From the NCBI GenBank assembly GCA_002842285.1, contig PHCJ01000004.1, positions 1 to 64,000 of the forward strand: a stretch of DNA of 64,000 nt. Direction: 5' to 3'. A program made the translations under genes and the position numbers. Origin of the DNA: Betaproteobacteria bacterium HGW-Betaproteobacteria-22 (GTDB taxonomy: Bacteria; Pseudomonadota; Gammaproteobacteria; Burkholderiales; Methylophilaceae). Below are positions 1 through 7,786 of this stretch, piece after piece. Each line of letters begins with the position of its first letter. The stretch's first letter is position 1. The notes under the pieces are model-generated. The model did not search any database, was not told where the DNA came from, and saw only the letters and a list, made by a program, of their open reading frames with translations.

Positions 1-27
1 TGTATCTGTATATTTCGAGGTCTTCAT
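1..27 (-). CDS. IS3-family transposase OrfA, N-terminal start only (cut by window edge)
   Basis: Nine codons are visible on the minus strand, starting at the ATG complementary to 25-27. A strong Shine-Dalgarno-like AGGAGA lies just upstream. The residues M-K-T-S-K-Y-T-D-T match the usual beginning of the helix-turn-helix OrfA of IS3-type transposases, which recognises the terminal repeats. The rest lies outside the window, so intactness cannot be judged. The call rests on resemblance of a very short peptide. Confidence 0.45.
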
Positions 28-98
28 AGAAATTCTCCTGTTAATAGTTTACGAGAAATTTCTACTTTTAAATGTGACTATTTTTAGGGGGGATTACA
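1..98 (-). mobile_element. End of an IS3-like insertion sequence (partial)
   Basis: Read on the minus strand, a terminus starting TGTAATCCCCCC at position 98 runs inward. It is followed by AACAGGAGAA and an ATG (27 to 25) opening a frame that reads M-K-T-S-K-Y-T-D-T up to the window edge. This start closely resembles OrfA proteins of IS3-family elements. The TGTA.. end and short leader before orfA fit that layout. Only about 98 bp are present, so the IS subgroup and the target duplication cannot be determined. Confidence 0.55.
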
Positions 99-162
99 TA
101 CGGACTGCACGACTATTAGCTGTTGCATTGATGTTGCGTATAAATCTACTTTTATTTGCCAT
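98..162 (-). pseudogene. 5' end of a small gene interrupted by the IS element
   Basis: An ATG at 162 (minus strand) is preceded at good spacing by AGGAGA. It opens a frame of about 20 codons (MANKSRFIRNINATANSRAV...) that runs straight into the IS terminus at 98, where a stop appears within two codons. A good ribosome-binding site on a frame ending at the IS boundary suggests a genuine gene whose 3' part was displaced by the insertion. The product is not recognised. It could also be a chance frame. Confidence 0.35.
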
Positions 163-184
163 GAATTCTCCTAGGTATAGACGT

Positions 185-217
185 AAAAAAGCCCGCAAGC
201 GATAAGGCTATGCGGGC
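185..217 (-). terminator. Rho-independent terminator
   Basis: The arms GCCCGCA (191-197) and TGCGGGC (211-217) form a perfect 7-bp stem. On the minus strand the stem is followed by a T-run, seen as AAAAAA at 185-190. It lies directly after the stop codon of the minus-strand frame at 239-649 and would end that transcript. Confidence 0.8.
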
Positions 218-238
218 AAACTGAAGGCAGCGAATTAG

Positions 239-649
239 TTAGTAGGCCGCTTTATTAAAATTTCTAATCACTTTGTACTTAATAATTTGATTGGTAGCAT
301 CCAAAATTTCCAATTCAGCACCTTTGTAACCTATCGTTTTTGATTCAGATAAATCATATTCGACATTATTGTTAAAAGCGGGTCTAGCAATACTGCTTGA
401 AAACTCTCTGTAGCCAATATTGATTTTATTACCCACTTTTCCACTATAAAGTAGCGTTTGCTGAAATGAGTCCTCAGTTAAAGATGGTTTTTTAACACGC
501 CGAAAATTTCCACCCTCTGTGCAACTTTTGACATTAAAGATCGTAACAATGCATAGTTTTGAATCTGTAAATAACTGCACGTGAAATTTCAGTCTAAGCA
601 TTGATTTAACATTAATGCTACTTATAGTCTGTCGTCTTATAGTCATCAT
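239..649 (-). CDS. Conserved hypothetical protein, probably 5'-truncated
   Basis: This is a frame of up to 136 residues. The C-terminal two thirds (from about residue 50: PSLTEDSFQQTLLYSGK..., then YREFSSSIARPAF, YDLSES, GYKGAELEILDATNQ) resemble a conserved beta-rich family of unknown function that normally sits in exported or lipid-anchored proteins. That resemblance is from memory, not a search. No signal peptide or lipobox is visible. The first codons overlap the C-box operator of the neighbouring restriction system (621-645), so the natural start is either Met17 (position 601) or has been lost. A terminator follows the stop immediately, which supports the frame being, or having been, a real gene. 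It is best read as a remnant left when the restriction-modification island arrived. Confidence 0.5.
   Translation of the reverse strand: MMTIRRQTISSINVKSMLRLKFHVQLFTDSKLCIVTIFNVKSCTEGGNFRRVKKPSLTEDSFQQTLLYSGKVGNKINIGYREFSSSIARPAFNNNVEYDLSESKTIGYKGAELEILDATNQIIKYKVIRNFNKAAY
621..645 (+). promoter_or_regulatory. C-box pair: operator for the controller protein
   Basis: The 9-mer CTTATAGTC occurs at 621-629 and again at 636-644, a 15-bp period, 46 bp upstream of the controller ATG. In established restriction-modification systems of the PvuII, AhdI and Esp1396I type, C-protein dimers bind paired boxes of this kind (ACTTATAGTC-like) upstream of their own gene. That binding activates, and at higher dose represses, the C-R operon. 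Only one clear pair is visible here, and a second (repressor) pair was not found. Confidence 0.7.
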
Positions 650-690
650 TTGTAGAGAATAGCTGTTTTATTGCTATGAAAGCTTTTTAA

Positions 691-909
691 ATGTCTAAAA
701 AAGCTCTACAAATCCTTCTCGCCAAAAATACGCGCGCACTCCGCGTCTCTCTAGGTTACTCGCAAGAACAGCTCGCTCATCACTGCGGTCTTCATCGCAC
801 TTATATTGGCTCTATAGAGAGAGGTGAAAAAAATGTCACGCTCAATACTTTATATGTTCTGGCACAGGCATTTGGCACCACAGTGCCAGAGCTTCTTAGC
901 GAAAAATAA
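691..909 (+). CDS. C-type controller protein of the restriction-modification system (XRE family)
   Basis: The 72-residue protein is essentially a single Cro/C1-type helix-turn-helix domain (residues about 10-68: NTRALRVSLGYSQEQLAHHCGLHRTYIGSIERGEKNV..., in the usual XRE pattern). Stand-alone proteins of 70-85 residues just upstream of an endonuclease gene are typical controller (C) proteins. They delay endonuclease expression until the host DNA is methylated. The C-box pair at 621-645 lies where such a protein would bind, and the endonuclease gene follows on the same strand after 46 bp. The inferred role is autoregulated timing of the C-R operon. Confidence 0.85.
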   Translation: MSKKALQILLAKNTRALRVSLGYSQEQLAHHCGLHRTYIGSIERGEKNVTLNTLYVLAQAFGTTVPELLSEK

Positions 910-955
910 TCAAATACTTGAATATCTCACATGCTTATTTCAAAAGAAAAAATTT

Positions 956-2608
956 ATGATTAAAAAAAAACCAAAATATGGTGATGATGCATTTTTAAAG
1001 TATGCAAAAGTAATTGTAGAACATCCAAACTATATAGGTATGCCAGATCCCATTGGAGAGCGTGGTGAAATTCAGTGGGAGGCGCCTTCAAACCGGAAAT
1101 CGGGAAAATTCAAAGATACTCATCATCGTCGTCGTGAATGGTGGCGACAGAAAGCTATCTCTCTTGGAATTGACCCAGCATCAGATAGTACTTGGATCAG
1201 CAAAACTGCAAAAATGATTCATCCATTCGGATCGAAACCATGCAAGACCTGCGGCAAAGAACTAAATATCGCGTATTGTTATCCAAATGAACATTTTTTC
1301 AAGCGACTTAAGAAGCTTGCATATATTGATGACACCTTCGAAGTATCAGAAGTAGAGCATATTTGTGATCTAATCGCACGAATGGAGAAACACTTTGGAA
1401 ATCGCATCTTTGCCGACCTTCCAAATCTTTTAGCTACATCCTCAATAAACATTCCACCTGTAGAGAACTCGCTTAAATCTTGGCAACATTTTCTAACCAG
1501 AACTTACATTCCTCAAGAGCCACGGATGCTCAGTCCTGGGGCAATGTCAAATCCACCAGACAGATTTGATGGATTCCATTCATTCAATAGATGCTGCCGT
1601 GCAACATCAGATACTGGGCGTTCAAAAGAAAATCTAAAAACATATGTAACTGATCGACGAGTTTTCGAATACTGGGTTGATGGAGACTGGGTTGCAGCCG
1701 ACCGACTAATGGGGCAGGTTCGCTCAAACGCCATTTTCGAGAAGGAAGAATGCTTTAATGCACAGCAAGGCGGAGTCCACCCTATCCCTTGTCAAGCAGA
1801 CCATATTGGGCCAATTTCACTTGGTTTCACACACAGGCCACAGTTCCAGCTTTTATGCAAAATATGTAACAGTGGGAAAAACAATCGGATGTATGCATCT
1901 GACGTCGCTCTTCTAAAAGAATCAGAGGCCGGTGGCGAAAAAGTAATCTCTTGGTTCGCCACTCAAATATGGGATCTTCGTAAAAATTCAGCAACAAATA
2001 CTGAAACATCAATTCGGTTAAGTAAACTCCTTCGAGATAATCGTCATACCTACATGTCATTGTTAAAACGTATTCTCGACGAAAACCATCACACCTTCCT
2101 AGCTAGCCTATTATATCTAGAGGCCGCCGATTTCGATCTAGAGTTTGTTAAACTGCGAGCCGAGAATCACATCACAAAATATGATCAATTACTACGCAGC
2201 TCGCGAACCACGAAATATGCAGTAGAACAAAAATCCCGAAGAATTCGCATAGCATTTTCCTCTCTCGCTGAATACCACCGTAAGGAAAATCGGAGTGCAT
2301 ATGTTATCTCCAACGCAAGAATTGAAGAAGAAATTGCTCGTGGGCTGGCTGAACTTCAGACAGCAAAATCGATTACATTAGACCTTGATAAACAAATTGG
2401 GAAAATATTAGAAGACAAGAACATTTCTGAAGAGGATTTACGTACACTCGCATCAACACTCCCTAAAGTACTAACGAGTCATAGCAAAACTTTCGCTTCA
2501 ATTCGTACACATTTCGAAAATGCAATGACTGAGGTTGGAAATGAACTAAATAAAATGTGGGATGACGACAGATACGTGCGATCAGCACCCGATGAAATTA
2601 TCGAGTGA
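956..2608 (+). CDS. HNH type IIS restriction endonuclease, Alw26I/Eco31I/Esp3I-like
   Basis: The protein has 550 residues. The frame is open from 824, but that stretch overlaps the controller gene. The ATG at 956, just after the controller gene, with an AGAAAA-type site, is the better start. The nuclease site is an HNH beta-beta-alpha fold near residues 282-310: an Asp-His pair (D282, H283), a CxxC (CKIC) and Asn305 in NSGKNNR. The 23-residue D-to-N spacing equals the D311/N334 spacing I recall for Eco31I. An earlier Cys cluster (CKTCGKELNIAYC) near residue 100 may bind zinc. The C-terminal 200 residues are helical and charged. The company of one cytosine and one adenine methyltransferase fits this family, which cuts outside an asymmetric site whose two strands are methylated differently. 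The exact recognition site cannot be read from sequence. Its 3' end overlaps the convergent methyltransferase gene by 11 bp. Confidence 0.8.
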   Translation: MIKKKPKYGDDAFLKYAKVIVEHPNYIGMPDPIGERGEIQWEAPSNRKSGKFKDTHHRRREWWRQKAISLGIDPASDSTWISKTAKMIHPFGSKPCKTCGKELNIAYCYPNEHFFKRLKKLAYIDDTFEVSEVEHICDLIARMEKHFGNRIFADLPNLLATSSINIPPVENSLKSWQHFLTRTYIPQEPRMLSPGAMSNPPDRFDGFHSFNRCCRATSDTGRSKENLKTYVTDRRVFEYWVDGDWVAADRLMGQVRSNAIFEKEECFNAQQGGVHPIPCQADHIGPISLGFTHRPQFQLLCKICNSGKNNRMYASDVALLKESEAGGEKVISWFATQIWDLRKNSATNTETSIRLSKLLRDNRHTYMSLLKRILDENHHTFLASLLYLEAADFDLEFVKLRAENHITKYDQLLRSSRTTKYAVEQKSRRIRIAFSSLAEYHRKENRSAYVISNARIEEEIARGLAELQTAKSITLDLDKQIGKILEDKNISEEDLRTLASTLPKVLTSHSKTFASIRTHFENAMTEVGNELNKMWDDDRYVRSAPDEIIE

Positions 2609-3782
2609 AATGATCAATATACTGCGCAGCAGAAATATAGCCGCGCATGAATTCTTGGTATTTAGTGGATGCTTTGTACCTGTAACCTTTGTCACCACCA
2701 TCTTGGCCTGGATTCAAACTTGGGAGGTCATCAAGAGCATCTCTAACCGATGGGGGGTAATGCAAGTCACTCACAATATCTTTAACATCCAGGCTTGTGA
2801 GAATAGGCGGAGGTACTTCTGGCACTCGACCAGTATTGTCGCCAATAATTACAATTCGCGAACGACGTTGAGGTATAGCATAGTTTTCCGAGTGGAGCTT
2901 CCAGACCATCAATCGCTTTGCATGCCTGCCAAGCTCTTCCTTCAGCATACTAAAAACGCGCCCTCCTTCCATATTTAGCAGCCCAGTAACATTCTCGAAC
3001 ACAAAGACATCGGGCTTAAGCGCTTCCAACAAACCACAATAATCTCTGAAAAGCCAGTTACGATCATCTTCCATGGATCGCTTGTTACCCGCTGTAGAGA
3101 AGCCCTGGCAGGGTGGCCCGCCTAGCACACATAAAGGCATTTCTGGATTACGAATCATTTCAACTTTAGTGAGAAGTGCTTCAGTAACATTACTTTTCCT
3201 AACATCCCCAACGATAACATCGTGATGCACGTTATCTTTATAGGTTTCGGCAAAGCTGGACTCAAGCTCATTGCCCACTAGTGTTTCCCAGCCTGCCCAT
3301 CTAAACCCAAGACCAAGCCCGCCTGCCCCAGCAAAAAGATCAACGGTTTGCCCAACCATGCCTAAATGCCTCGCAACCTGATAAGCCAAGAGTGGTGGAA
3401 CTGCATTACCAATCTGAGTTCCAATCGAAGTTTTACTTCCCTTAAATTCAAAACTATCAGGAAAAGATTGGAGGCGAGCCGCTTCCCTCTGGGATATCGT
3501 TCTATGTTGACCGCCTGCGTAGTCATAGTGAATGTGGCACCCATTTCCTGGGCGAGTAAAGTAAGTATTAATGGTATAGGCCGGTCGATCTGGATGTAAT
3601 CTTCCATAATAAGTTGATCTACTTCCTTTACCTTCTGCGAAACTAATCCTGATATTCTCCAGCCTCGCAGACGGAACATTTTCAGGAATATCTTTCCAGT
3701 TCCCACCTGGCGGCACAGCTCGACATATCATGAGGTCTAGTTCGCTTAAATTTGATGCGTAGTGATTTCTAATTAGCGGCAT
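2598..3782 (-). CDS. DNA (cytosine-5-)-methyltransferase, circularly permuted
   Basis: The 394-residue enzyme would methylate one strand of the restriction site. All C5-methyltransferase motifs are present but in permuted order. Motif IX (TISQREAARLQSFPD, residues 95-109) and motif X (QIGNAVPPLLA, 123-133) come first. They are followed by motif I (VDLFAGAGG, 147-155), motif IV with catalytic Cys225 (GGPPCQGFS), motif VI (ENV, 263-265) and motif VIII (QRRSR, 305-309). The C-terminal 85 residues (SVRDALDDLP...) look like the segment that normally links VIII to IX, so the target-recognition region is split between the two ends. M.BssHII is the established precedent for such a permutation. The start codon directly follows the stop of the upstream adenine methyltransferase gene without a gap, implying translational coupling. 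No motif residue appears to be missing. Confidence 0.9.
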   Translation of the reverse strand: MPLIRNHYASNLSELDLMICRAVPPGGNWKDIPENVPSARLENIRISFAEGKGSRSTYYGRLHPDRPAYTINTYFTRPGNGCHIHYDYAGGQHRTISQREAARLQSFPDSFEFKGSKTSIGTQIGNAVPPLLAYQVARHLGMVGQTVDLFAGAGGLGLGFRWAGWETLVGNELESSFAETYKDNVHHDVIVGDVRKSNVTEALLTKVEMIRNPEMPLCVLGGPPCQGFSTAGNKRSMEDDRNWLFRDYCGLLEALKPDVFVFENVTGLLNMEGGRVFSMLKEELGRHAKRLMVWKLHSENYAIPQRRSRIVIIGDNTGRVPEVPPPILTSLDVKDIVSDLHYPPSVRDALDDLPSLNPGQDGGDKGYRYKASTKYQEFMRGYISAAQYIDHFTR

Positions 3783-5507
3783 TTATAATGTATTATTTCT
3801 GGGACTATCAATAAGGATTTTTCTGATTTCTGCAACATCGTCAGGAGCTTTCATTTCAAGCTGGTCAAGCATTTCTAAATAAATATCATCAGGTAAACCA
3901 TACCATCTAGCAACTCCCACTTCAATTTCTGCTGCAGTTTCGGAATTTGGAGAATGCAAAAAACTCTCAACTAACTGACCTATTTCAGCAAGAAACTTCT
4001 CATTGGTAAGATCTGGAACACGAATCTTGCGAATTGCTCCCACTGAAAGATGATTAGTGCTGATAGATGCGCGGATCAACGCCTCAAAGATTGCAGAATT
4101 AAATACAGCAAGCAAGGCATTAAGCAAACGTTCATAACCTGCTTTTACGGTTAGGACATTCAGAGAATTTCCTGTGACATACCCTGGCGGCAAAAGAGTC
4201 GCGATCATTCTTCTTACGGAACTCTGGCGAGCAACATCACGCCATACTATCCTTAGGGAATTAGCTGAGACAGGAGGAGTAATTTCTCGATTTAAGAAAT
4301 CTGATGCGCTGTCATCAAATGAAAATCGCTTTACCTGCCTACCCTTAATAAATCGATAATCACCTGTCTGGCAGAGCTTGTGCGCTATTCCAGTTTCATC
4401 TAGTTCTCGCCCAAGTTTTATTAAGCCATATTGGTTTGATTCGAAATCACTAAGTTTTGGCAACTTCATTAGATATGGCATTGCCGATGATATTCCTAAT
4501 GAGCTAGTAAAACCAATCGCAAAATCGTGAGACTTTAGAAATTCAAAATTTAAATTAAGCGTAGGAGGTATACCTTCACCTGGCTTTTCCTGATGTTGAA
4601 TAATATCAAGCTGGGAATTATCAAACGCGTTTAGATTGGTAAGTCCCTCCTTTTTTCCAACAAAATAAACAGCCGCTTGATCCACACCGTCAAATAATCT
4701 CGCCTCGGCCGGGTAGTGATGAATGGTGTTAACTTGATTTGTCGTTAGTAGCCATGTACGCAGGGGTGCTGAAACTTGATCTCCAAAAATTGTAGCTGGT
4801 GCAACGATACCAAAATACCCCTTATCTTTTACTAGACGTACGGATGCTTCAATACCGCAGCATGCAAGGTTAGTACCCCAACCAGAAAATTTGCGGGCAG
4901 GTTTGGCGTGGGGGTATGCATTCTCTAAATTTAAAACTTTTTCTTTTAACAATGCGATATAAGCATCTTTTGCTACTTCATCAAGTTTGGATAACTCTCT
5001 GCTATCTGGTCTAATAATTTCCCATGGAGGATTAGTAATACAAACATCAAATGAGCATTCAAAATTTAAAGTCTTACTAAAAGAATCGACAGTGCAAGCT
5101 TTAACGCTGTATTTTATTAAGGGTAGAAGCTTAGATAATGCCGCTAATACTGAAGTTTCAGCAAGCTTTAAAGATGCTTCATCACAATCCCATAAGGTTA
5201 TATCTACAGCAAGGATTGAAAGCTTTTTTTGGCTGAATAACTCTTCAATCAACCAGCATATCAAACGGCCATCACCACAGAATGGATCAATAATCCGAAG
5301 TCGTTTAATATTTTGAAACGTAAGTCTGTCAGCAATATCAATTGCCATAGACCGTCCGATACGTTCATGAGTATAAAAGCGGCCAGTTAAACGCTGCTCT
5401 AAATCTTTATTCCCAGCATAAACAACCTTAACCCCTCTTGTCGCAGCCTGCAACTTTATTAAGTTGGACTCATATTGATTTTTAGTATCGCTAGCTTCCA
5501 AAAGCAT
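3783..5507 (-). CDS. DNA (adenine-N6)-methyltransferase of the restriction-modification system
   Basis: The protein has 574 residues. The motif order is that of gamma-class N6-adenine methyltransferases: an N-terminal motif X region (GRFYTHERIGRSMA, about residues 42-55), motif I for S-adenosylmethionine (IIDPFCGDG, near 72-80) and catalytic motif IV NPPW (near 159-162). A roughly 350-residue C-terminal part follows that should carry target recognition. It is the first gene of a two-gene minus-strand operon with the cytosine methyltransferase, and together they would protect the two different strands of an asymmetric site. Length and partners agree with adenine methyltransferases of Alw26I/Eco31I/Esp3I-type systems. 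Upstream (5508-5740) is AT-rich, with only a weak C-box-like stretch at 5553-5568, so control of this operon by the C protein is uncertain. Confidence 0.85.
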   Translation of the reverse strand: MLLEASDTKNQYESNLIKLQAATRGVKVVYAGNKDLEQRLTGRFYTHERIGRSMAIDIADRLTFQNIKRLRIIDPFCGDGRLICWLIEELFSQKKLSILAVDITLWDCDEASLKLAETSVLAALSKLLPLIKYSVKACTVDSFSKTLNFECSFDVCITNPPWEIIRPDSRELSKLDEVAKDAYIALLKEKVLNLENAYPHAKPARKFSGWGTNLACCGIEASVRLVKDKGYFGIVAPATIFGDQVSAPLRTWLLTTNQVNTIHHYPAEARLFDGVDQAAVYFVGKKEGLTNLNAFDNSQLDIIQHQEKPGEGIPPTLNLNFEFLKSHDFAIGFTSSLGISSAMPYLMKLPKLSDFESNQYGLIKLGRELDETGIAHKLCQTGDYRFIKGRQVKRFSFDDSASDFLNREITPPVSANSLRIVWRDVARQSSVRRMIATLLPPGYVTGNSLNVLTVKAGYERLLNALLAVFNSAIFEALIRASISTNHLSVGAIRKIRVPDLTNEKFLAEIGQLVESFLHSPNSETAAEIEVGVARWYGLPDDIYLEMLDQLEMKAPDDVAEIRKILIDSPRNNTL

Positions 5508-5702
5508 TTAATGATTAAGCCCTAGTATTTATGTAAAAAAATATTTTAAAATTGACCATACACTATACTAATAAATTAACCAAATATTGTTAGTAGCATT
5601 TATTTAGATGAAGCCAATCACTATTAATTAAGCTTAATATGCGAATTTAATTTACACCTTAAAAGCAATCTCACAGAGGCTAATACACAGCTCCTAAAAA
5701 TC

Positions 5703-5734
5703 AAAAAGGGGTTACATTTTCACGTAACCCCTTT
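5703..5734 (-). terminator. Terminator after rpoD and tRNA-Ile (bidirectional)
   Basis: The arms AAAGGGGTTAC (5705-5715) and GTAACCCCTTT (5724-5734) form an 11-bp perfect stem with an 8-nt loop. Minus-strand reading ends in a T-rich tract (TTTTTGATTTTT). It lies 7 bp beyond the 3' end of the tRNA and would end the rpoD-tRNA transcript. It also insulates the AT-rich island from housekeeping transcription. Confidence 0.85.
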
Positions 5735-5741
5735 ATTTTAA

Positions 5742-5820
<79 letters not shown>

Positions 5821-5845
5821 AAAACTTCAAAGCTTCTATTCTAAA

Positions 5846-7786
5846 CTAATCTTGACCTGTTTCTAAGAAGCTTCTTAATCTCTCTGAACGTGTAGGATGA
5901 CGCAGCTTACGTAATGCTTTAGCCTCTATCTGACGAATGCGCTCGCGCGTCACATCAAACTGCTTGCCCACTTCTTCCAGCGTATGGTCGGTATTCATCT
6001 CAATACCAAAACGCATGCGCAACACTTTTGCCTCGCGCGGAGTCAATGACTCCAATACCTCACTCGTTGCATCACGCAGACTAGCATAAACAGCCGCATC
6101 AACAGGCGCCAAAGTCGTACTGTCTTCAATAAAATCGCCAAGGTGTGAATCTTCATCATCACCGATCGGCGTTTCCATTGAAATAGGCTCTTTGCTGATT
6201 TTCAATATCTTGCGAATCTTGTCTTCAGGCATTTCCATTTTCTCAGCCAATAGCGCGGGATCCGGCTCTACACCGGTTTCCTGCAATATCTGGCGGCTGA
6301 TACGATTCATTTTGTTTATTGTTTCAATCATGTGCACAGGGATACGAATCGTACGTGCCTGGTCTGCAATACTGCGTGTGATTGCCTGGCGAATCCACCA
6401 TGTGGCATAGGTTGAGAATTTAAAACCACGACGATATTCAAATTTATCAACCGCCTTCATCAACCCAATATTACCTTCCTGAATCAGGTCCAAGAACTGC
6501 AAACCACGGTTGGTGTATTTTTTCGCAATAGAAATCACCAAACGCAAATTCGCCTCGATCATCTCGCGCTTGGCGCGACGTGCTCGCGCCTCGCCGGTTG
6601 TCATCTGCTTGTTGATCTCTTTCAACTCTTTGATTGAAATACCAACTTTGTTTTCCAAATCAATAATACGCTGCTGCTGATCAAGGACTGAGTGATTAAA
6701 CAAGGCCAGCTTCTCAACATAAGGCTCATCTGCTTTAAGTTCTTGTTGCAGCCAATCTAAATTACTTTCATTACCAGGGAAGGATTTAATAAAATGCGCG
6801 CGCGGCATACCTGCACGCTCGACACAGAAATCCAACACCTTGCGCTCGTGCCCACGCACTGCTTCAACCAGAAGACGCACTTGATCACACAACGACTCCA
6901 CCTGTTTTGGTGAAAAACGGAATACCGTCAACTCATCAAGAATCACTGCCAATAAAGCTTGATACTCAGAATCCTGCGAACCGCGCAAAGGCAAAATATC
7001 CGCCATCTGCTGGTGTGCCGAACGTACAACAGAAAAACGGGCAAGCACTTCCTCTTTAAGCTTGGCTAAGGCTTCAGCTGATACAGCGGCAGCTTTGGCG
7101 CCACCCTCGTCTTCGTCTTCTTCTTCGTCATCCTCAACCTCTGGCGCATCTTCTTCATCAGAAGTTTCAGCCATTGCATCATCTAAACCAATATCGGCAT
7201 CAATCAGTCCATCCACCAGCTCATCAACACTCAGCTCGTCTTTTTCAACTTTATCCACGATTTCGAGCAAAGCTGCGACCGTTGTCGGGCAAGCGGCAAT
7301 AGCCTGCACCATATGCTTAAGACCATCTTCAATACGACGCGCAATTTCAATCTCGCTCTCGCGGGTAAGCAAATCAACCGTACCCATTTCGCGCATATAC
7401 ATACGCACAGGGTCTGTCGTACGGCCAAATTCCGAGTCTACCGTTGCCAGCGCCTGCTCAGCTTCTTCCACGGCATCTTCATCAGTTACGGCAGGAGGTG
7501 CATCTGACATCAACAGCGCTTCAGCATCAGGCGTCTCTTCGTACACCTGAATACCCATGTCGTTGATCATCCCAATGATGCCGTCTATCTGCTCTGAACC
7601 CTGAACATCATCAGGCAAGTGATCATTAATTTCAGCATAAGTAAGATAGCCGCGCTCTTTACCTAGCACGATCAAGCTCTTTAGACGCACCCTGCGCTCC
7701 TCAGCGTTCACCTCATGCTGCACAGCGCCTGTATGCTCCTCTACGTTTTTCTCAGCCGCTTGATCACTTTTCTTTGGTCTTGCCAT
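5846..7786 (-). CDS. rpoD: RNA polymerase primary sigma factor (sigma-70)
   Basis: The protein has 646 residues. It has region 1.1 at the N-terminus, region 1.2 ([21 protein letters not shown]), a long non-conserved insert with a very acidic stretch near residue 215 ([18 protein letters not shown]), regions 2.1-2.4 ([20 protein letters not shown]... [13 protein letters not shown]), region 3, and region 4.2 ([20 protein letters not shown]) near the C-terminus. It directs core polymerase to housekeeping promoters (-35/-10 recognition by regions 4 and 2). It is the last protein gene of the rpsU-yqeY-dnaG-rpoD cluster. An 83-bp gap separates it from dnaG and could hold an internal promoter. The large acidic insert is usual in beta- and gammaproteobacterial RpoD. 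Confidence 0.97.

What the first reader, a model, noticed from the sequence alone, without database searches (positions are those of the whole stretch)
2598..3782. Circularly permuted cytosine-5 methyltransferase with a split target-recognition region
Motifs IX and X (residues 95-133) precede motif I (147), and IV, VI and VIII follow. The usual VIII-to-IX linker is cut in two: the protein ends ...YIDHFTR and begins MPLIRNHYASNLSELD..., which look like the two sides of one ancestral (N/D)H junction. This implies a fold permutation with new termini inside the recognition domain. M.BssHII is a known precedent; whether this lineage shares that event or arose separately is open.
Basis: partly seen in the sequence, partly recalled or inferred. 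Interest (0 to 1): 0.6.

Follow-up and report, generated by a model that had tools for sequence, protein, structure and literature searches.

The report
Permuted methylase of an Eco31I-type system
The protein is a DNA-methylating enzyme whose parts are joined in a rotated order, but this rotation is already known for the enzyme family it belongs to (Alw26I, Eco31I, Esp3I), so it is a new member of a known kind.

Summary
The minus-strand ORF 3782..2598 (394 aa) is a C5 DNA methyltransferase in the order TRD-IX-X-I-VIII. Against a profile of linear relatives the native protein gives two abutting hits; rotated at residue 143 it gives one, profile 2-350 of 357. An AlphaFold2 model is confident (pLDDT 91.4, pTM 0.92). 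24 other proteins in my set share the order.

It is not new. Its neighbours match the N6 methyltransferase and endonuclease models of the Alw26I/Eco31I/Esp3I type IIS family, and the same permutation is on record for M.Alw26I, M2.Eco31I and M.Esp3I (PMC5944983, passages).

The "(N/D)H on both sides" idea fails: the N-terminal (N/D/S)H is in 25 of 25 proteins, the C-terminal (N/D)H in this one only. The break lies at the edge of the recognition region.

The 25 form one weakly supported clade, sister to linear enzymes of BpuSI-like N6+C5 operons. Two phage proteins (L152, L158) may be a second permutation (AU p = 0.022). M.BssHII could not be placed.

The parts
2598..3782 (-). Circularly permuted C5 DNA methyltransferase, 394 aa (M2.Eco31I/M.Alw26I type)
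   Evidence: PF00145 E 2.6e-54; colinear over residues 3-390 with PADLOC model PDLC03381 (448.1 bits)
3507..3782 (-). Residues 1-92: N-terminal head beginning at the conserved (N/D/S)H, and recognition (TRD) region
   Evidence: H7 invariant in 20 of 20 rows of A3; (N/D/S)H head in 25 of 25 permuted proteins
3366..3506 (-). Residues 93-139: motifs IX and X
   Evidence: aligned to HaeIII MTase 272-319 and to linear-profile positions up to 350
2832..3350 (-). Residues 145-317: motifs I-VIII, catalytic half with PCQ (C225), ENV and QRR
   Evidence: VIA Z 19.7 to M.HhaI over 184 residues, rmsd 2.1
2598..2831 (-). Residues 318-394 and stop: post-VIII variable stretch and C-terminal tail (..FMRGYISAAQYIDHFTR)
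   Evidence: MRG-I-x(4)-YL-like tail in most of the family; the DH is private to this protein among 25
3783..5507 (-). N6-adenine methyltransferase, 574 aa; its stop codon abuts the C5 start codon
   Evidence: TIGR02987 360.8 bits, cut-off 353.5; sequence
956..2608 (+). Type IIS restriction endonuclease of the Alw26I/Eco31I/Esp3I family, convergent with the C5 gene and overlapping its 3' end by 11 bases (start ATG at 956 chosen by me; the listed ORF starts at GTG 824)
   Evidence: (scanned as 824-2608): TIGR02986 564.6 bits (cut-off 443.85); PF09665 E 3.2e-190
691..909 (+). HTH protein, 72 aa, controller (C) protein-like
   Evidence: PF01381 E 5.3e-15; PADLOC Control_protein E 1.6e-21

Best explanation
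This is the C5-cytosine half of the double methylase of a complete Alw26I/Eco31I/Esp3I-type (type IIS) restriction-modification system. The polypeptide is a circular permutation of a linear C5 methyltransferase: the old ends (after X, before I) are joined by a short link (residues 141-144 lie between the two profile hits), and the new ends lie in the variable region between motif VIII and the recognition block. It should fold as an ordinary C5 methyltransferase. By family knowledge (recalled) the recognition block binds one orientation of an asymmetric GTCTC-containing site, a cytosine is flipped out, Cys225 attacks its C6, and SAM gives the methyl group; the abutting N6 methyltransferase modifies an adenine of the other strand, and together they protect the host from the endonuclease encoded convergently next door. 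Shown here: motif order, fold prediction, family membership of all three enzymes, colinearity with relatives. Inferred: activity, target site, regulation by the small HTH protein.
For: Rotation test, one hit instead of two. AlphaFold2 pLDDT 91.4, pTM 0.92. Colinear match to PADLOC PDLC03381 over residues 3-390, and to PDLC03237 (1036 positions, matched at 656-1014; the window's N6 protein matches its 118-640, so it models an N6-C5 fusion). Neighbours above curated cut-offs: TIGR02987 and TIGR02986, PF09665. 25 permuted proteins, the window counted, in bacteria, Thorarchaeota, plasmids and phages. Of these 25 (window counted), 14 have a relative of the window's endonuclease and 20 a relative of its N6 enzyme in the fetched locus. 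Literature: permutation of M.Alw26I, M2.Eco31I, M.Esp3I and M2.BsaI (PMC5944983, passages); GGT(m5C)TC / GAG(m6A)CC for Eco31I, the m5C there predicted and not detected in that work (PMC4659465, passages). [quoted passage not shown] by the E. coli sequence that start is the MIPNH head.
Against: No activity or recognition site was tested. The N6 match to TIGR02987 is only 7 bits over its cut-off. In the same paper M2.BsaI begun at its second ATG showed no activity (PMC10810934), so the head rule drawn from M2.Eco31I is not general or that start lies further in; I had no M2.BsaI sequence. Structure comparisons with the PDB are order-bound and cover mainly the catalytic half, model residues 106-383, so the IX-X half was not independently superposed. 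No coordinates were given, so contact of the two termini was not measured.
Confidence: 0.95

Rival explanations
1. The order is an artefact: a frameshift, misassembly or accidental fusion of two partial genes.
For: Two PF00145 stretches in swapped order could arise so.
Against: One uninterrupted ORF; 24 other proteins in the set, from separate records, have the same order; the two profile hits abut without loss (227|230); 631 of 5426 E. coli genomes carry a gene at 99% identity or more to L004, a permuted relative.
Confidence: 0.01
2. This lineage was permuted separately from the other Alw26I/Eco31I/Esp3I-type proteins.
For: The clade of 25 permuted rows has only 92/66 support; in the quick tree five linear rows lay inside or beside it.
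Against: The window protein sits in starred all-permuted sets of 3, 13 and 14 rows (100/99, 100/98, 100/99), the latter two with the E. coli Eco31I-type protein L004, and 25 of 25 heads share the (N/D/S)H start.
Confidence: 0.03
3. The permutation event is the same as that of M.BssHII.
For: Both break in the variable region (PMC5944983, passages). The 25 rows here, with different partners, look like one event.
Against: No M.BssHII sequence was at hand; L152 and L158 suggest that the same kind of break can arise twice (AU p = 0.022).
Confidence: 0.5

Closest known systems
M2.Eco31I / M2.BsaI / M.Alw26I and the C5 half of M.Esp3I (Bitinaite et al. 2002, not read, as cited in PMC5944983)
   Same: Same permutation (TRD-IX-X-I-VIII); N6 partner and endonuclease families named after them; convergent layout as at the E. 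coli/Enterobacter loci L004 and L014
   Different: 56% identical to the E. coli relative L004; separate N6 and C5 genes as in Eco31I, whereas the nearest relatives L092 and L093 (75 and 74% in A3) are N6-C5 fusions, as recorded for Esp3I (PMC3874165, passages)
M.BssHII
   Same: Natural C5 methyltransferase permuted in the variable region (PMC5944983, passages)
   Different: Relation not testable here; its R-M system is not of the Alw26I type as far as I recall
Linear C5 enzymes of BpuSI-like operons (L011, L137, L116, L136, L068)
   Same: Nearest linear relatives, also beside an N6 methyltransferase; rotated window protein aligns to L011 in one HSP, 246 bits, 38.8% identity
   Different: Canonical I-X order; partner endonuclease is BpuSI-like
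M.HhaI, M.HaeIII, DNMT1/MET1 (solved structures)
   Same: C5 fold and motifs
   Different: Linear order

Membership tests
C5-cytosine DNA methyltransferase (PF00145) | Profile match with PCQ, ENV and QRR catalytic motifs | tested here: met
   185.3 bits, cut-off 22; C225, E263-N264-V265, Q305/R307 invariant in the 20 rows of A3
Circularly permuted C5 methyltransferases | Motif X before motif I in one chain, break in the variable region | tested here: met
   one hit only after rotation near residue 143; break at profile 227|230
Alw26I/Eco31I/Esp3I type IIS R-M system | Endonuclease of TIGR02986/PF09665 | tested here: met
   564.6 bits (cut-off 443.85); E 3.2e-190
Alw26I/Eco31I/Esp3I type IIS R-M system | N6 methyltransferase of TIGR02987 | tested here: met
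   360.8 bits, cut-off 353.5 (narrow)
Alw26I/Eco31I/Esp3I type IIS R-M system | Recognition of a GTCTC-containing site, m5C on one strand and m6A on the other | not testable with these tools
   needs methylome or digestion data
M.BssHII lineage | Closer kinship to M.BssHII than to linear C5 enzymes | not tested
   no M.BssHII sequence; PMC147014 not held

The most novel reading that the evidence does not exclude
The C5 permutation of this family arose once, inside an operon that already paired a C5 with an N6 methyltransferase (its linear sister clade sits in such operons, 5 of 5), and it put the C5 recognition block next to the N6 protein, where the two genes have repeatedly fused (7 of 25). 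A second, separate permutation of a very short C5 enzyme without an evident recognition block occurs in phages (L152, L158).
Probability: 0.35. Interest if true: 0.4.

Novelty: new member of a known kind. Interest (0 to 1): 0.17.

Why it matters
The gene itself adds one more member to a documented family whose enzymes are everyday cloning tools. Of wider use is the rotated tree. It ties the permuted family to a linear sister clade that also works beside an N6 partner, gives a concrete place to test how the permutation came about, and points to two phage proteins that may be a second natural permutation.

Tried and rejected
Two-sided (N/D)H scar of a duplication: rejected, the C-terminal (N/D)H is in 1 of 25. 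Pairwise, the two native HSPs against L011 do overlap by six residues (L011 238-243), but the relatives do not keep the motif.

One clade of all 27 permuted rows (25 plus L152 and L158): the tree holding them together is 20.2 log units worse, AU p = 0.022. This is moderate evidence only: the group was defined by motif order before the trees, but I ran the test after seeing them, and L158 has a long end branch. The structure model for L158 with two rows is poor (pLDDT 45.3, pTM 0.40), so nothing is drawn from it.

Tandem C5-C5 proteins as direct intermediates of this permutation: 9 found. Seven form their own clade, away from the permuted one, and one half of L100 sits with linear rows; both rows of L086 and the other half of L100 were left out of that tree as long branches. 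Not supported as ancestors.

N6 pairing as special to the permuted clade: a simple motif count (same-strand ORF of 250 aa or more with [NDS]PP[YFW] within 400 nt, or a fusion) gives 20 of 25 permuted, 5 of 5 sister linear, 14 of 40 other linear. A first version, [ND]PP[YF] only, gave 9 of 25, 5 of 5 and 13 of 40 and missed the window's own NPPW; I widened it after seeing that. It is a crude motif, some loci are cut by contig ends, and L004 misses only because its N6 gene is broken in that record. L011's N6 enzyme found no hit to the window's N6 enzyme at E 1e-5, so the partners are not close relatives and the pairing may be convergent.

Rows dropped: of 34 ORFs called PERM or PERM+multi, L001-L003 are the window again, L008 is frameshifted, and three PERM+multi (L028, L048, L100) are tandem linear proteins; 27 remain. 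16 partial ORFs (some of L008 and L010 among them) were not classed. Of 146 linear rows, 62 entered the quick tree. The careful tree left out 20 of the 107 rows of the quick tree, as long or doubtful branches or near copies.

M.BssHII: sequence not available; papers PMC102321 and PMC147014 not held. Promoter and terminator scans of 1-5850 were near or below the shuffled counts (11 against 15.9; 5 against 4.5) and are not used.

Full report
WHAT IS THERE. The gene lies on the minus strand, 3782..2598, one open frame of 394 codons. Directly upstream of it (3783-5507, minus) ends a 574-aa N6 methyltransferase; its TAA abuts the ATG of the C5 gene. Facing both is an endonuclease ORF (956-2608, plus; start chosen by me), whose end overlaps the end of the C5 gene by 11 bases, and before it a 72-aa HTH protein (691-909). 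Curated models name them: TIGR02987 (360.8 bits, cut-off 353.5) for the N6 enzyme, TIGR02986 (564.6, cut-off 443.85) and PF09665 (E 3.2e-190) for the endonuclease, a PADLOC control protein model for the HTH gene. This is a complete Alw26I/Eco31I/Esp3I-type type IIS R-M system by gene content. The only two PF00145 matches in the genome both lie in this ORF.

THE PERMUTATION IS REAL. Pfam, the PDB comparison and my own profile all see two halves in swapped order. With a profile made from 146 linear relatives the native protein gives 214.5 bits for profile positions 2-227 at residues 145-383 and 121.0 bits for 230-350 at residues 4-140. I cut and rejoined it at every residue: the best cut is 143, one hit of 346.1 bits over positions 2-350 of 357, and only cuts 129-151 come within 5% of that. 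BLAST against the linear L011 protein gives two HSPs (143 and 122 bits) for the native and one (246 bits, 38.8% identity) for the rotated chain. AlphaFold2 with 20 rows from the window and fetched loci gives pLDDT 91.4 and pTM 0.92, which speaks for one packed fold. Order-bound comparison with solved structures finds M.HhaI (Z 19.7, 184 residues, rmsd 2.1) and DNMT1 over the catalytic half; the other half was not superposed separately, and distances between the termini were not measured.

WHERE THE NEW ENDS ARE. The two profile hits abut at 227|230, so little or nothing of the profile is lost or doubled. In linear relatives an H, commonly (N/D/E)H, lies about 18 residues before the GG(N/S) motif; the permuted proteins begin just before it, (N/D/S)H in 25 of 25. 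That (N/D)H is in 1 of 25 permuted proteins, the window's own; L092 and L093 have YLSKVTR and YLEKVTR. The tail after MRG is a short helix in the model (residues 385-393) with a family-like sequence, not the other bank of the junction. The recognition block is thus moved rather than split, with the caution of PMC5944983 that TRD borders are somewhat arbitrary. [quoted passage not shown] The E. coli protein here reads MTKSETF-MIPNH, so the M2.Eco31I start would be the family head; this link is my inference from the lengths given (396 and 389 aa).

IT IS KNOWN. PMC5944983 (passages) names M.BssHII, M.Alw26I, M2.Eco31I, M.Esp3I and M2.BsaI as permuted, reports 27 permuted sequences in REBASE, all with the break in the variable region, and cites Bitinaite et al. 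2002, which I did not read. PADLOC holds a permuted profile that matches the window protein over residues 3-390, and an N6-C5 fusion profile. A permuted relative, 56% identical to the window protein (L004), has copies of 99% identity or more in 631 of 5426 E. coli genomes, all 631 on chromosomes; 9 of the 10 records listed carry the Alw26I/Eco31I/Esp3I-type N6 gene under the same match.

SURVEY. One genome-contig scan and one viral-contig scan with A1 kept the best 80 loci each (so these are not totals). With earlier loci and the window this gave 27 distinct permuted proteins with unbroken frames. Of these, 25 group together, from Pseudomonadota, Cyanobacteriota, Bacteroidota, Bacillota, an Acidimicrobiales MAG, Thorarchaeota MAGs, and plasmid, phage and viral-contig records. 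Counting the window, 14 of the 25 loci hold a relative of the window's endonuclease and 20 a relative of its N6 enzyme, one of them (L018) at only 19 bits; 7 are N6-C5 fusions. Five show neither by homology (L006, L023, L094-L096); of these L023 has an upstream ORF with a DPPF motif, and the phage L006 and viral contigs L094-L096 look like orphan enzymes. The system is sporadic: PF09665 is in 1 of 398 genomes drawn from the phylum, the window's own, and 0 of the 24 other same-genus genomes searched, several of them incomplete, has a C5 match at E 1e-20.

TREE. On catalytic plus TRD-IX-X columns aligned in rotated register, the careful tree (87 rows) puts the window in starred sets of 3, 13 and 14 permuted rows. 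All 25 form one clade (92/66, not starred) whose sister is five linear proteins, 100/97 for the 30 together. All five linear sisters sit beside relatives of L011's N6 and BpuSI-like genes, the match of L068 being the weakest. L152 and L158 fall elsewhere, with linear L054, L041 and L036 (95/91). Holding all 27 together costs 20.2 log units, AU p = 0.022. So most likely one event made the Alw26I/Eco31I/Esp3I-type enzymes and their kin, from a linear enzyme related to the BpuSI-partner kind, and a second, less certain one made the two phage proteins. Where M.BssHII belongs I could not test.

MECHANISM. Steps reported for the family (PMC4659465 and PMC3874165, passages): the C5 enzyme marks a cytosine of one strand of GGTCTC, the N6 enzyme an adenine of the other, and both belong to an R-M system with the endonuclease. 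For this system the site is inferred only to the level of the family. Why the permutation is kept is not known. One idea: it puts the C5 recognition block beside the C-terminus of the N6 protein, where gene fusion then occurs (7 of 25 permuted against 0 of 45 linear rows of the careful tree); relatedness was not corrected for.

VERDICT. A correct and good observation of a documented architecture; low novelty.

Noticed in passing
L158:4491-5612 and L152:5010-5825 (viral contigs): Two phage C5 enzymes, 45% identical, in the order IX-X-I-VIII, ending right after motif VIII and without an evident recognition block; L152 follows a ParB_N gene, L158 has a weak DUF1016_N-like head (E 0.0036, under the cut-off). 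They fall outside the main permuted clade. Of 26 relatives found with them, the only permuted ones are these two contigs again, the other 24 are linear. The listings of literature searches showed nothing of this kind.
   Followed up: partly
L027, L028, L029, L048, L049, L086, L100, L107, L156: Nine single-chain tandem C5-C5 methyltransferases (two copies in one ORF); seven of them form one clade in which first and second copies separate, so that duplication is older than their split.
   Followed up: partly
L013:7181-8509, L015:7196-8485, L098:6194-7504: Three permuted C5 + N6 pairs are followed by a gene with a NOV_C domain (Pfam PF13020), and no Alw26I-type endonuclease was found in the fetched stretch: the double methylase seems to be used with another, possibly nuclease, partner.
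   Followed up: partly
L006:4986-6185 (Thermus phage phiLo), L094-L096: Permuted C5 enzymes as apparent orphans in phage and viral contigs, with no relative of the window's N6 enzyme or endonuclease found in the fetched stretch.
   Followed up: no
window 5742-5820: tRNA-Met(CAT) gene on the minus strand, its 3' end facing the R-M genes, and an ORF behind it (5846-7786) that I read as an RpoD-type sigma factor without a family search; with no C5 match in 24 other same-genus genomes this looks like an island at a tRNA. No convincing flanking repeat was found within 1-6200, and the contig begins at window position 1.
   Followed up: partly
L008 (Roseomonas mucosa plasmid pTT14-9): A related permuted C5 gene beside a very-short-patch-repair gene and an N6-type gene is frameshifted in this record.
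   Followed up: no
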